The position numbers were made by a program, and so were the translations under genes. From Pseudobutyrivibrio sp. (GTDB lineage Bacteria > Bacillota > Clostridia > Lachnospirales > Lachnospiraceae): 64,000 nucleotides of DNA. The stretch lies in NCBI RefSeq assembly GCF_015057185.1, contig NZ_SVEV01000010.1:29857-93856 (forward strand), read 5' to 3'. Every line of letters starts with the position of its first letter. Position 1 is the first letter of the stretch. Under the pieces are notes generated by a model. It searched no databases, was not told where the DNA came from, and saw only the letters and a list, made by a program, of their open reading frames with translations. Below, piece after piece: positions 12,413-28,347 of this stretch.

Positions 12413-13110
12413 GCCCACAAAAAAACAAACCCGCCACCGGGCCATGGCATAAGTGGTCCACACCTTCTCAACAAGATTTGACCAAGCCCCTTTACGCCCC
12501 TGTGGCACCGAGGGTAATGCAAACTTTGCAAGAATATTATGTTTTCCATATATGCAAAGTGTCGCATCTTTAATTAGCATGTGTCTTTCTCATGTCTGTA
12601 CAATTTTGAAAAGCTGTTTTCCATAGGTGGACACACAAATCCTTTAAATAATTGTGCATTTCAGACTCAGGGGAACTTGGCGCGATTTTGGAGTGCGCTT
12701 AGAAAATTAAAAACAGGATTATCAATATATTGGCATGCGCCGCTAGGATGGCGGCGCAAGTGCGACACGCGACACGATGTCGTATAAAGCACGGTGCCAA
12801 TATATGATAATCCTGTTTTTTAAATTTTCTTAGCAAACGTAATATGAGCCCAAGTCCCCTGAGTTCTGAGATGCACAGTTAATGAATCCAAAGTGTCCAC
12901 CTAGCAGGAAAACACTTTTCAAAATAGTTCATCCATAGAAAGACACATGCGAGATGCTCCCTTTTTGCATATTGGAAAACTATAATATTCGCAAAATTGT
13001 TTGCATTACCCTTGGTGCCACAGGGGCGTAAAGGGGCTTGGTCATTATACTATAACCGGGTGTGGACGCTTATGCCAGGACCCCGGTGACGGTGTTTGTG
13101 TTTTCTTTGG
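12413..13110. repeat. Element A: ~700 bp imperfect palindrome with branched apex (candidate giant hairpin RNA)
   Basis: The two halves are reverse complements over about 340 bases each. Best blocks: 12480-12509 pairs with 13014-13043 without mismatch (30 bp); GGTGGACAC at 12626-12634 pairs with 12893-12901; the core 12714-12815 pairs through 22-base arms. The apex holds two small hairpins, TGCGCCGC/GCGGCGCA and one closed by GTGC/GCAC containing CGACA/TGTCG. The outer right arm runs into the last codons of the rod-binding protein gene and the left end reaches close to the recD2 start, so the element fills the whole intergenic space. The core is the reverse complement of element B's, so if one strand is functional it is the minus strand here, read from the flagellar gene toward recD2. 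No convincing ORF lies inside. Structure is seen directly; function is unknown. Confidence 0.85.
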
Positions 13111-13528
13111 CAATGTCCTCGGAAACTGAGGCGTCATCTGGGCTTATATCCTCTAATGGAAGGTTCGTAGTACCTGTGATACCGTAGTTGCGCATAATCT
13201 GGTCTACGAAGTCTTCGGTGATATTGTCACCTACTTGGTCGACGATTTGCGAAGCCATTTCGGAGTACATTTTGTCCATGAAGAAGTCTTTGTACATGGA
13301 AATGCTGTTGTCCTCTTCTTCGTCGTTTTCGTCTACGAAGGATTCCTTCATTTGCTTAAGGACTTGCTCCATCATGTAGGTTTCGAAGCTTTTTACGGCT
13401 TCAGTAACTTCTTCTTTGCTGGAATCCGCGGTGATTTTTCCTATTGACTTTGTGGTTTCCTCGGCAGCCTGCTTAGCTGCATTTGCGTATTGCGACTGCA
13501 AATACGTGTTCATTGTTGTTACATCCAT
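13070..13528 (-). CDS. Flagellar rod-binding protein (FlgJ N-terminal domain type)
   Basis: About 152 residues from the ATG at 13528, chosen because GGGGGATGGG sits 4 bases before it; an upstream TTG frame start at 13570 lacks such a site. The middle carries the rod-binding signature FETYMMEQVLKQMKES and a MYSEMASQIVDQ segment, matching the N-terminal half of FlgJ; the muramidase half is absent, as in many Firmicutes. The C-terminal ~30 residues are low in complexity. It is the last gene of the flgF-flgG unit and its final codons form part of the stem of palindrome A, so protein and nucleic-acid structure share the same bases. Confidence 0.8.
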   Translation of the reverse strand: MDVTTMNTYLQSQYANAAKQAAEETTKSIGKITADSSKEEVTEAVKSFETYMMEQVLKQMKESFVDENDEEEDNSISMYKDFFMDKMYSEMASQIVDQVGDNITEDFVDQIMRNYGITGTTNLPLEDISPDDASVSEDIAKENTNTVTGVLA

Positions 13529-13597
13529 TTTCCCATCCCCCTTAGTGAACTTGAATTTCCAAATCCGCAATAATGAAAATTCTACACCTACTATTTA

Positions 13598-25477: not shown

Positions 25478-25513
25478 CATAAAATAACGGCCTCCAAGGT
25501 GGTGGAAGCCGTT
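25478..25513 (-). terminator. Intrinsic terminator of uvrA
   Basis: Minus strand AACGGCTTCCA / TGGAGGCCGTT (11 bp, one G-T), followed by ATTTTATGG, immediately after the uvrA stop. It mirrors the terminator at 24846-24878 as the opposite outer arm of palindrome B. Confidence 0.85.
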
Positions 25514-25521
25514 AAAGTGAA

Positions 25522-28347
25522 TTATTTAAGATAGTCTTTCAGGTATTGACCGGTGTAGCTTTTCTTGACTTTGACGATTTCTTCTGGCGTTCCCTTTGCG
25601 ATGACGGTGCCGCCGCGGTCGCCGCCGTCAGGGCCCATATCGATGATGTAGTCGGCACACTTGATTACGTCAAGGTTGTGTTCGATTACTACTACGGTGT
25701 TGCCAGAGTCTGAGAGCTTGCGCATGATTTCTACAAGCTTGTTTACGTCGTCGAAGTGGAGTCCTGTAGTTGGCTCGTCAAGGATGTAGATGGTCTTGCC
25801 TGTGGCACGACGTGAAAGCTCTGTAGCAAGCTTGATACGCTGGGCCTCGCCACCTGATAGTGTGGTGGATGGCTGGCCAAGCTTTATGTAGCCAAGACCT
25901 ACGTCATAGAGGCATTGGATTTTGTTGGCTATGCTAGGCACGTTTTTGAAGAATTCTACTGCTTCTTCTACGGTCATATCAAGGACGTCGTAGATTGTTT
26001 TGCCCTTGTAGTGGACTTCTAGTGTCTCGCGGTTGTAGCGCTTGCCACCGCATACTTCGCAAGGAACATAAACATCTGGAAGGAAGTGCATCTCAATTTT
26101 GATGATACCGTCACCAGAGCATGCTTCGCAGCGTCCGCCCTTTACGTTGAAGGAGAAGCGTCCCTTGTTGTAGCCACGCTCCTTTGCCTCAGTTGTGCCT
26201 GCAAATAAGTCACGTATTAGGTCGAATACGCCTGTGTAGGTGGCTGGATTTGAACGTGGTGTACGTCCAATTGGTGATTGGTCGATATCGATTACTTTAT
26301 CAAGAGCCTCGACACCAAGGATGTCATCGTGCTTTCCTGAAATCTTACGGGCACGATTCAGTCGTTTTGCTAAATCCTTGTAGAGAATCTCATTAACAAG
26401 AGAACTCTTTCCAGAGCCTGAAACACCTGTGACTACTGTCATGATGCCAAGTGGTATGTCAACATCTATGTTTTTAAGGTTGTGCTCTCTGGCACCCTTT
26501 ATGGTAAGCCATCCGTTTGGCTGTCTGCGCTCCTTTGGAACAGGAATGCAGAGTTTACCACTAAGATATTGGCCTGTGATGGAATTTGGATTGTCCATAA
26601 TTTCCTGAGGAGTACCTGCAGCAATGACCTCTCCACCATCCTTGCCTGCACGAGGGCCGATATCCACAAGATAGTCTGCGGCCTTCATGGTATCTGCATC
26701 GTGTTCTACAACTATTAGTGTATTTCCAAGGTCTCGAAGGCCCTTGAGTGATGCTAATAACTTGTCGTTATCCTTTTGATGAAGTCCAATAGATGGCTCA
26801 TCTAAGATGTAGGCAACGCCAACAAGTCCAGAACCAATCTGGGTGGCAAGACGAATTCGCTGAGCCTCACCACCTGAAAGTGTAGCTGTTGCACGGCTAA
26901 GTGTAAGGTAATCAAGTCCTACATCTACCATAAATTTAAGTCTGTTTCTAATTTCTTTTAGGACAACAGCACCAATTTTTTTCTGTTGCTCTGTAAGCTC
27001 GAGATTGTCGATTAAATCGTAAAGCTCATGAACTGGGTACTGGGTCATCTCAAATATATTTTTGTCTGAGATTGTAACAGCAAGGGATTCCTTTTTTAGA
27101 CGCTGTCCATGGCAGCATGGGCAGTCACTATAAAACATAAATTCCTCGTACTCTTTCTTCTGATTCTCTGAGAAGGTTTCTTTGTAGCGACGATTAACAT
27201 TTTCAATCAAGCCTTCGAAAACGGTAGGATACACTCCTCTGCCTCGCTGTCCCTGATAGTGAACATCAACTGATTTGTCAAAGCCATGAATAAACATGTG
27301 ACGAATATTCTCTGGCAGATCCTTGTAAGGTGTATCAAGTGAGAATCCGTATTCTTCTGACAAAGCCTCAAGAAGGGCATGGGCAAAGCTTGAAGATTTG
27401 TTAGAGGATTGCCAACCAATAACCTGCACTGCTCCCTCATTGAAGGATAGGCTCTTGTCAGGAATCATAAGATCCTCATCAAATTCCATTTTGTAGCCAA
27501 GTCCAAAGCACTCAGGACATGCACCAAATGGATTGTTGAAGGAGAAGCTACGAGGCTCTACCTCATCAATGCTGATACCGCAATCTGGGCAGGAGAAGCC
27601 CTCAGAAAATCTAATTGGTTCTCCATCGATTACATCAACAATCATAAGGCCGTCTGCAAGCTTTAGTACATTCTCAATGGAATCTGTAAGACGCTTTTCT
27701 ATACCCTCTTTTATTACAAGTCTATCAACCACAATCTCAATGTTGTGTTTGATATTTTTATCAAGCTTTATTTCCTCTGATAAGTCGTAAACATTACCAT
27801 CAACATTTACACGAACATAACCAGACTTTTTAGCCTTTTCAAAAAGCTTTTCATGAGTACCCTTTCGACCTCTAACTACAGGAGCTAAAAGCTGGATTTT
27901 GGTACGCTCTGGTAGAGTCATGATGGCATCAACCATCTGGTCAACTGTCTGCTTACTGATTGGTTTGCCGCAATTAGGGCAATGTGGTATACCGCATCTA
28001 GCGTAAAGTAGACGCATGTAATCATAAATCTCTGTGACAGTACCAACTGTAGAACGTGGGTTGTGGTTAGTACTCTTTTGGTCAATGGAAATAGCGGGTG
28101 GCATGCCTTCCATGTGCTCAACATTAGGCTTTTCCATTTGGCCTAAGAACTGACGGGCATAGGAAGATAGAGACTCCATGTAGCGTCTCTGTCCCTCTGC
28201 AAATATAGTGTCAAAAGCCAATGAAGATTTACCAGAACCTGATAAGCCTGTGAGAACAACAAATTCATCACGAGGAATATCAATGCTGATATTTTTAAGA
28301 TTGTGCTCGTTGGCTCCTTTTATTTTTATATATTTTCTTTCTTTCAT
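25522..28347 (-). CDS. uvrA: Excinuclease ABC subunit A
   Basis: Damage-recognition ATPase of nucleotide excision repair. 941 residues, standard length, with two ABC modules: Walker A GLSGSGKSSLAFD and GVSGSGKSSLVNE, signature motifs TLSGGEAQRIRLA and TLSGGEAQRIKLA, and zinc sites CPNCGKP, CPDCGIS/CPECFGLGY and CEACSGDGIIKIEM. Lies 92 bases downstream of uvrB on the same strand. Its last codons and stop are inside the outer arm of palindrome B. Confidence 0.98.
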   Translation of the reverse strand: MKERKYIKIKGANEHNLKNISIDIPRDEFVVLTGLSGSGKSSLAFDTIFAEGQRRYMESLSSYARQFLGQMEKPNVEHMEGMPPAISIDQKSTNHNPRSTVGTVTEIYDYMRLLYARCGIPHCPNCGKPISKQTVDQMVDAIMTLPERTKIQLLAPVVRGRKGTHEKLFEKAKKSGYVRVNVDGNVYDLSEEIKLDKNIKHNIEIVVDRLVIKEGIEKRLTDSIENVLKLADGLMIVDVIDGEPIRFSEGFSCPDCGISIDEVEPRSFSFNNPFGACPECFGLGYKMEFDEDLMIPDKSLSFNEGAVQVIGWQSSNKSSSFAHALLEALSEEYGFSLDTPYKDLPENIRHMFIHGFDKSVDVHYQGQRGRGVYPTVFEGLIENVNRRYKETFSENQKKEYEEFMFYSDCPCCHGQRLKKESLAVTISDKNIFEMTQYPVHELYDLIDNLELTEQQKKIGAVVLKEIRNRLKFMVDVGLDYLTLSRATATLSGGEAQRIRLATQIGSGLVGVAYILDEPSIGLHQKDNDKLLASLKGLRDLGNTLIVVEHDADTMKAADYLVDIGPRAGKDGGEVIAAGTPQEIMDNPNSITGQYLSGKLCIPVPKERRQPNGWLTIKGAREHNLKNIDVDIPLGIMTVVTGVSGSGKSSLVNEILYKDLAKRLNRARKISGKHDDILGVEALDKVIDIDQSPIGRTPRSNPATYTGVFDLIRDLFAGTTEAKERGYNKGRFSFNVKGGRCEACSGDGIIKIEMHFLPDVYVPCEVCGGKRYNRETLEVHYKGKTIYDVLDMTVEEAVEFFKNVPSIANKIQCLYDVGLGYIKLGQPSTTLSGGEAQRIKLATELSRRATGKTIYILDEPTTGLHFDDVNKLVEIMRKLSDSGNTVVVIEHNLDVIKCADYIIDMGPDGGDRGGTVIAKGTPEEIVKVKKSYTGQYLKDYLK

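What the first reader, a model, noticed from the sequence alone, without database searches (positions are those of the whole stretch)
12413..25534. Two ~700 bp giant palindromes whose arms covary: a candidate new large structured RNA (or DNA hairpin) family
Seen directly: elements A (12413-13110) and B (24826-25534) each fold back on themselves over ~340 bp per arm. They share a 102 bp core in opposite orientation with one base difference in an apex loop, and equal arm geometry (the long perfect block ends 190 and 186 bases from the core). Within a copy the arms match; between copies many paired stretches differ: the 30 bp block of A (12480-12509/13014-13043) versus the 25 bp block of B (24919-24943/25413-25437); GGTGGACA versus GGCGGACA on both arms; an A-T pair next to the core in A that is G-C in B. 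Other blocks differ between left and right arm but are conserved between copies (for instance the ATGTGTCTTTCTATGGATGA side versus the ATGTGTCTTTCTCATGTCTG side), as expected for bulges and internal loops. Arm-to-arm gene conversion alone would erase that left/right difference. In both copies the same core strand lies downstream of a gene on its own strand (rod-binding gene; sucrose phosphorylase). I know no family with this plan; ROOL, GOLLD, HEARO and OLE do not fit a single long hairpin.
Basis: partly seen in the sequence, partly recalled or inferred. Interest (0 to 1): 0.95.

Follow-up and report, generated by a model that had tools for sequence, protein, structure and literature searches.

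The report
Dispersed DNA palindrome with covarying arms
The two giant palindromes are two of 23 copies, in one bacterial genome, of a dispersed element whose centre is catalogued as an RNA family; because its paired arms change together without the loose G-U pairing that real RNAs tolerate, it likely works as a folded DNA hairpin that moves between gene ends, not as an RNA.

Summary
In detail: A and B are real ~700 bp palindromes (DNA-fold z about -34 each) sharing a 102 bp core with one mismatch. The core is not new: it is Rfam RF01731 (TwoAYGGAY), a candidate RNA of unknown function. The rest of the element is what my searches did not find described. In 21 of 21 testable copies here the palindrome runs past a conserved ~470 bp hairpin into GC-rich arms that match within the copy but not between copies. 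The site of A is empty in 16 of 16 relatives compared. In the arms G.U mismatches do not exceed A.C (92 versus 112), whereas SRP and SAM-I RNAs show 25 and 17 times more G.U than A.C; the core stems are low in G.U (2.1%) but not clean. Copies sit just past stop codons and are three-fold enriched between convergent genes. Best reading: a foldback mobile DNA element that likely works as a DNA hairpin, one arm templated on the other. Against: no transposase, target duplication or expression data; some relatives carry element-free palindromes at the same gene ends; whether arms are re-copied in place or at movement is undecided.

The parts
12413..13110 (+). Element A, whole palindrome (core on + strand)
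12686..12845 (+). RF01731 TwoAYGGAY core of A
   Evidence: 63.9 bits
12530..13000 (.). conserved imperfect hairpin of A (about 235 nt either side of the centre, 12765)
   Evidence: zone limits from the profile
12479..12524 (.). hypervariable arm of A, left
   Evidence: 46 nt, 98% complementary to 12999-13044
12999..13044 (.). hypervariable arm of A, right
12413..12478 (.). outer flank of A on the recD2 side, an imperfect inverted copy of the 3' end of the neighbouring gene
13045..13110 (.). outer flank of A, including the stop codon and last codons of the ORF at 13070-13570
24826..25534 (-). Element B, whole palindrome (core on - strand)
25099..25258 (-). RF01731 TwoAYGGAY core of B
   Evidence: 64.4 bits
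24944..25412 (.). conserved imperfect hairpin of B
   Evidence: zone limits
24895..24943 (.). hypervariable arm of B, left
   Evidence: 49 nt, 94% complementary to 25413-25461
25413..25461 (.). hypervariable arm of B, right
24822..24882 (.). outer flank of B with the stop codon of the gene at 23164-24828 and a terminator-like hairpin
   Evidence: inverted match to 25475-25537
25475..25537 (.). outer flank of B with the uvrA stop codon and a terminator-like hairpin

Best explanation
A and B are two of 23 copies in this genome of a dispersed palindromic element (apex = Rfam TwoAYGGAY) that has entered gene ends left empty in relatives and likely works and moves as a folded DNA hairpin, one arm of which is predicted to be templated on the other, rather than as a structured RNA. 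Shown: copy number, the empty site of A, a conserved ~470 bp imperfect hairpin, GC-rich outer arms that match within a copy and differ between copies, absence of a G.U preference in the arms, and position just beyond stop codons. Inferred: that the folded strand is DNA; that the arms are kept alike by hairpin-templated copying (template switching, or repair synthesis during movement) and not by selection on an RNA; and that an unidentified enzyme acts on the fold. Whether the re-copying happens in place or at each movement is undecided.
For: RF01731 core in both. 23 copies in G000, 64 of 64 candidates scored; 29 of 61 genomes and 3 of 33 genera. All 23 G000 copies form one clade (99/98) and the 23 MD2005 copies used another (100/100), in a tree of 81. 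Site A: 16 of 16 relatives compared have only 55-141 nt there; the pfkB site of L037 is closed up in 3 of 3 same-genus relatives with that gene. Outer arms: same-locus scores 63-149 in 21 of 21 testable G000 copies, cross-locus maximum 39 of 462; 51 of 60 copies from many genomes have a perfect run of 15 bp or more beyond 230 nt, against 19 of 800 cross-locus pairs. At 235-265 nt arms are 95% Watson-Crick inside a copy while between-copy identity falls to 0.66, near the 0.61-0.63 of outer flanks. Arms: G.U 92, A.C 112; controls SRP 179 and 7, SAM-I 17 and 1. Core: 32 pairs with Watson-Crick types interchanging, G.U 2.1% of 2941 cells. Another genus (G032) has a compact ~235 bp form with sharp AACTTCC...GGAAGTT ends and a covarying arm inside them.
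Against: No transposase, gene-bearing copy or target duplication found. Core stems raw: G.U 62, A.C 13; 52 of the G.U sit in two pairs (10 and 13 without them), and G032 whole elements have 21 and 7, so a weak RNA-like leaning in the core remains. 9 of 60 copies lack a 15 bp outer run. Low G.U could also follow from arm copying acting on a transcribed RNA. Relatives without the element have palindromes at the same gene ends (L128, L134), so outermost flank palindromes may be old terminators. Ortholog pairs do not agree on how arms change.
Confidence: 0.6

Rival explanations
1. A large structured RNA (core and arms transcribed), whose stems are also kept perfect by DNA template switching, so that G.U pairs are removed.
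For: RF01731 is filed as a candidate RNA; the 2010 paper's table marks it 'probably' RNA (passage). Raw G.U exceeds A.C in the core (62 and 13). First apical loop keeps GGA in 91 of 92 cores, a motif that another paper reads as CsrA binding (passages). Template switching is reported to maintain RNA stems (PMC8794818, abstract and opening).
Against: No G.U preference in 53 copies' arms. The second loop has GGA in 24 of 92 cores, CGA in 58, and 10 did not match. No consistent orientation to neighbouring genes (19 of 39 tandem settings). Orthologous copies can be inverted in place (L221/L247, L228/L230).
Confidence: 0.2
2. The element is a short insertion into the loop of pre-existing bidirectional terminators; the locus-specific arms are simply the old terminator stems.
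For: Empty sites of A in relatives hold a terminator-like hairpin. G010 (L134) and G012 (L128) have element-free palindromes spanning both stop codons. 55 of 73 stop codons lie 280-380 nt from the centre against 12 of 57 start codons.
Against: In 449,607 bases only 2 of 13 perfect inverted repeats of 18 bp or more are not elements, so ordinary stems here are shorter. Empty gaps of 2-11 nt (L125, L126, L135, L137) are too short to hold ~65 nt arms. MD2005 copies at different loci share arm sequence, and in G032 the variable arm lies inside fixed ends.
Confidence: 0.12
3. Palindromes grow in place: replication template switching at a hairpin keeps extending and correcting the arms, with no role in movement.
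For: In 18 of 71 copies the palindrome passes the cross-locus 99th percentile beyond 330 nt, none beyond 460 nt. At the pfkB site both coding ends look partly rewritten towards each other. Orthologous L024/L026 differ by 19 paired changes. Arm homogenisation and spacer inversion by template switching are described in yeast (PMC8604942, abstract).
Against: The four closest ortholog pairs show 0 paired and 22 one-arm changes. The conserved left/right differences inside 235 nt are not erased.
Confidence: 0.25

Closest known systems
Rfam RF01731 TwoAYGGAY (Weinberg et al. 2010, PMC2864571; passages seen)
   Same: The cores of A and B and 21 further places in this genome match the model above its gathering score.
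   Different: Filed as a cis-regulatory RNA of 168 positions; here it is the apex of a 600-900 bp dispersed palindrome with arms that show no G.U preference.
Palindromic MITEs and REPINs (PMC3116915, search listing only)
   Same: Many non-coding palindromic copies between genes, amplified within a genome.
   Different: REPs are 20-40 bp (PMC3733652, listing). Their usual partner, a Y1 transposase (recalled), does not track copies: PF01797 has 1 match in G000 and 0 in G021. A locus-specific covarying arm is not something I know of there (recalled).
Integron attC sites (PMC2727003, search listing and start of abstract)
   Same: Poorly conserved sequence with a conserved imperfect hairpin, recognised as folded single-stranded DNA.
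   Different: Works-like comparison only: no integrase, cassette or core site was looked for.
Quasi-palindrome template switching (PMC8794818, PMC8604942; abstracts)
   Same: Explains paired changes and spacer inversion without selection.
   Different: Described for short repeats and RNA stems, not for a dispersed element with ~300 nt arms.

Membership tests
Rfam RF01731 TwoAYGGAY | covariance-model score above the gathering score (43 bits) | tested here: met
   64.4 and 63.9 bits in the window; 23 places, 50.2-64.4 bits, in the genome
Rfam RF01731 TwoAYGGAY | two AYGGAY apical loops | tested here: inconclusive
   GGA kept in loop 1 in 91 of 92 cores, in loop 2 in 24 of 92
structured RNA | G.U pairs tolerated well above A.C | tested here: not met
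   arms 92 and 112. Core raw 62 and 13, without two pairs 10 and 13; G032 whole element 21 and 7, so the core alone is not decided
structured RNA | transcribed | not testable with these tools
   no RNA-seq
MITE-like mobile element | many dispersed copies with empty orthologous sites | tested here: met
MITE-like mobile element | terminal inverted repeats with defined ends | tested here: inconclusive
   sharp AACTTCC ends in G032; no fixed end sequence in Pseudobutyrivibrio
MITE-like mobile element | target-site duplication | tested here: inconclusive
   none evident by eye in the 14 G032 copies or at site A; no systematic search
MITE-like mobile element | autonomous relative with transposase | tested here: inconclusive
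   PF01797 does not track copies; no gene between paired ends in the G032 places read; other transposase families not tested
REPIN | paired REP with RAYT (Y1) partner | tested here: not met
   G021, at least 38 copies, has no PF01797 match

The most novel reading that the evidence does not exclude
A Rfam RNA family is really the apex of a mobile DNA hairpin that renews its own outer arms: at each cycle one arm (and sometimes the host gene end beside it) is rewritten from the other, so every insertion carries its own perfectly self-complementary barcode while the inner hairpin stays fixed.
Probability: 0.25. Interest if true: 0.85.

Novelty: new variant of a known kind. Interest (0 to 1): 0.6.

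Why it matters
Covariation is the usual proof that a sequence acts as RNA. Here is a case in which strong Watson-Crick covariation comes without a G.U preference, which points to DNA. If right, RF01731 should be re-filed, the published CsrA-sponge idea for it needs rethinking for Pseudobutyrivibrio, and the ratio of G.U to A.C becomes a simple filter for other candidate RNAs. A dispersed element with self-renewing arms would also give a natural system for studying hairpin-templated DNA synthesis and its effect on neighbouring gene ends.

Tried and rejected
First arm alignments with loose gap scores aligned random flanks and were discarded; stricter scores and cross-locus nulls replaced them.

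Orientation slip: loci from the genome search are stored in contig orientation, which I first missed. The G.U/A.C count mixed strands and is void; one search is oriented but its A.C counter counts one type twice (corrected by hand in my notes); one search is the clean count. The word 'flip' refers to contig orientation. The copy table used a wrong centre, one search stopped with an error, and one search replaces both.

IS200/IS605-type (Y1) mobiliser: PF01797 does not track copies, so I dropped it. Arm captured from elsewhere in the genome: one arm (L038) was searched in G000 and matched itself, its partner and, weakly (26-28 nt, 86-89%, E 0.03 and 0.1), both arms of another copy, so I dropped it for that arm. 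A tRNA control gave too few genes to use.

Paired versus one-arm changes: (pairs chosen by arm similarity, which favours little-changed arms) four close ortholog pairs give 0 paired and 22 single changes, a fifth (L203/L222) 4 and 20, and five disjoint MD2005 paralog pairs 22 and 48 (Fisher 0.0012, or 0.0056 with the fifth). Against it, one search gives 3 and 13 for L015/L022 and 19 and 28 for L024/L026, both orthologous. Transversions are 86 of 118 paired changes in the paralogs (comparisons not independent) but 110 of 256. I therefore do not claim that re-copying happens only at movement.
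Full report
Observation. They fold as DNA to -239.6 and -244.0 kcal/mol, z about -34 against 20 shuffles each, and share 102 bp with one mismatch. Inverted-repeat blocks are listed. In 449,607 bases of the genome the scan for perfect inverted repeats of 18 bp or more found 13 clusters, 11 of them these elements.

Identity of the core. An Rfam scan of the window gave two matches over the gathering score, both RF01731 TwoAYGGAY, at 12686-12845 (+) and 25099-25258 (-). The 2010 source paper lists it as probably RNA, not cis-regulatory (table passage); a 2014/15 paper proposes CsrA binding (passages); Rfam 15 lists it among families whose structure was revised (passage). Seven papers in the library hold the name, five were listed, and I looked at passages in three. 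Searches for bacterial palindromic MITEs at terminators and for Pseudobutyrivibrio with inverted repeats gave nothing on this element.

Copies and host. The genome has 23 copies. Of 61 genomes 29 have matches, from 3 of 33 genera (there at most 38 candidates a genome were scored for most genomes, so the 38 in G021 is a lower bound). A pattern scan of named genomes gave 75 stretches, 74 in Pseudobutyrivibrio or Lachnospiraceae records and one in Bradyrhizobium that I take for chance. G021's contig lengths equal those of Pseudobutyrivibrio sp. MD2005, so the window's genus is taken to be Pseudobutyrivibrio (inference).

Anatomy. Measured from the centre: (i) 0-235 nt, conserved between copies (identity 0.71-0.84) with arms 76-98% Watson-Crick and steady left/right differences; (ii) 235 to about 320 nt, GC-rich (0.51-0.64 of pairs), 86-95% Watson-Crick inside a copy but with between-copy identity of 0.63-0.66, close to the 0.61-0.63 further out (53 of 60 copies with long arms; 250 random pairs). 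In G000 the outer-arm score is 63-149 in 21 of 21 testable copies (two run off contigs) against a cross-locus maximum of 39. In a wider set, 51 of 60 complete copies have a perfect outer run of 15 bp or more, 9 do not, 24 matches lay too near a contig edge and one was masked. Sister copies in G000 with at least 0.95 identity over the central 450 bp (9 pairs) have arm identity 0.59, the same as distant pairs (141 pairs); in MD2005 24 such pairs have 0.76 against 0.54. So the arm belongs to the element but turns over fast. (iii) In 18 of 71 copies the palindrome goes on past 330 nt, above the cross-locus 99th percentile; in none past 460 nt. At A this outer part includes the 3' coding end of the ORF at 13070, with an imperfect inverted copy on the recD2 side; at B it includes both stop codons.

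Insertion. At site A, 16 of the 20 same-genus relatives fetched were compared; all 16 have 55-141 nt between the genes, with a terminator-like hairpin, and none has room for the element. Three more lacked recD2 in the stretch and one was not given to the comparison. At L037, 3 of 3 same-genus relatives with the kinase have 13-46 nt between the coding ends. At L039, 8 of 19 relatives keep both genes convergent: one (G013) is filled, with the palindrome starting at both TAG stops; four have 2-11 nt; one has 51 nt with a perfect element-free palindrome, one 141 nt with inverted terminator copies, one 289 nt. At B, G012 and G016 have about 730 nt of other sequence. Copies cluster by genome in a tree of 81, while close orthologs pair across species. 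Sites with orthologous flanks but different clades and unrelated arms (for example L050, L018, L217) suggest repeated use of the same gene end, although concerted evolution inside genomes could mimic this.

Setting. With a home-made gene finder, 65 copies had genes on both sides: 17 convergent, 39 tandem, 9 divergent, against 62, 582 and 70 for other neighbouring gene pairs in the same stretches (Fisher 9e-5; orthologous copies not removed). Stop codons lie 280-380 nt from the centre in 55 of 73 cases, start codons in 12 of 57.

DNA or RNA. Arms beyond 235 nt: G.U 92, A.C 112; 30-235 nt: 145 and 170. Neither strand shows a wobble preference. Core stems: 92 distinct cores, 32 consensus pairs, 2941 cells: 2793 Watson-Crick, 62 G.U, 13 A.C, 73 other; 42 G.U are one loop-closing pair and 10 another, leaving 10 and 13. 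SRP RNA, handled the same way (30 sequences): 17.8% G.U, 0.7% A.C; SAM-I (12 sequences): 6.2% and 0.4%. G032 elements: core 3 and 0, whole element 21 and 7. The arms thus argue against selection as RNA; the core is low in G.U but leaves some doubt.

How arms change. The results are mixed and are set out in Tried and rejected. Two of the four closest ortholog pairs have the core inverted relative to the flanks (L221/L247, L228/L230), as recombination or template switching between arms would give.

Another genus. In G032 fourteen copies show a compact ~235 bp form with AACTTCC...GGAAGTT ends, unique flanks and a covarying arm inside the ends. Solo ends were found at several places; those read showed no gene between paired ends.

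Mechanism. Most likely (0.6): a foldback mobile DNA element that enters gene 3' ends and is handled as a DNA hairpin by an unknown enzyme; the conserved inner hairpin and loops would be the recognised part, and the outer arms need only match each other and would be renewed by copying one arm from the other. The folded DNA, the copying and the enzyme are inferred.

Noticed in passing
L031, L043, L010, L014; G024:C82 and C35 (core at bases 21-180); L225, L237, L241, L254: Many copies lie at contig ends, so assemblies seem to break at the palindrome and copy counts in draft genomes may be too low.
   Followed up: no
L128 (G012) and L134 (G010), gap of the L039 site: Element-free palindromes spanning both stop codons of convergent genes, one with inverted copies of a whole terminator; palindromic gene ends may be common in this genus.
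   Followed up: partly
G036:C47:139778-140356 and G036:C33:53805-54433 (L274, L276): Two TwoAYGGAY cores in opposite orientation a few hundred bases apart in another genus.
   Followed up: no
L322:953-1075, L321, L323-L326: Shortened or solo-ended derivatives of the G032 element lacking a full core.
   Followed up: partly
L037:1180-1285 and 1883-1990: The kinase gene and the convergent gene have C-terminal ends partly rewritten towards each other's inverted sequence while keeping similar amino acids.
   Followed up: partly
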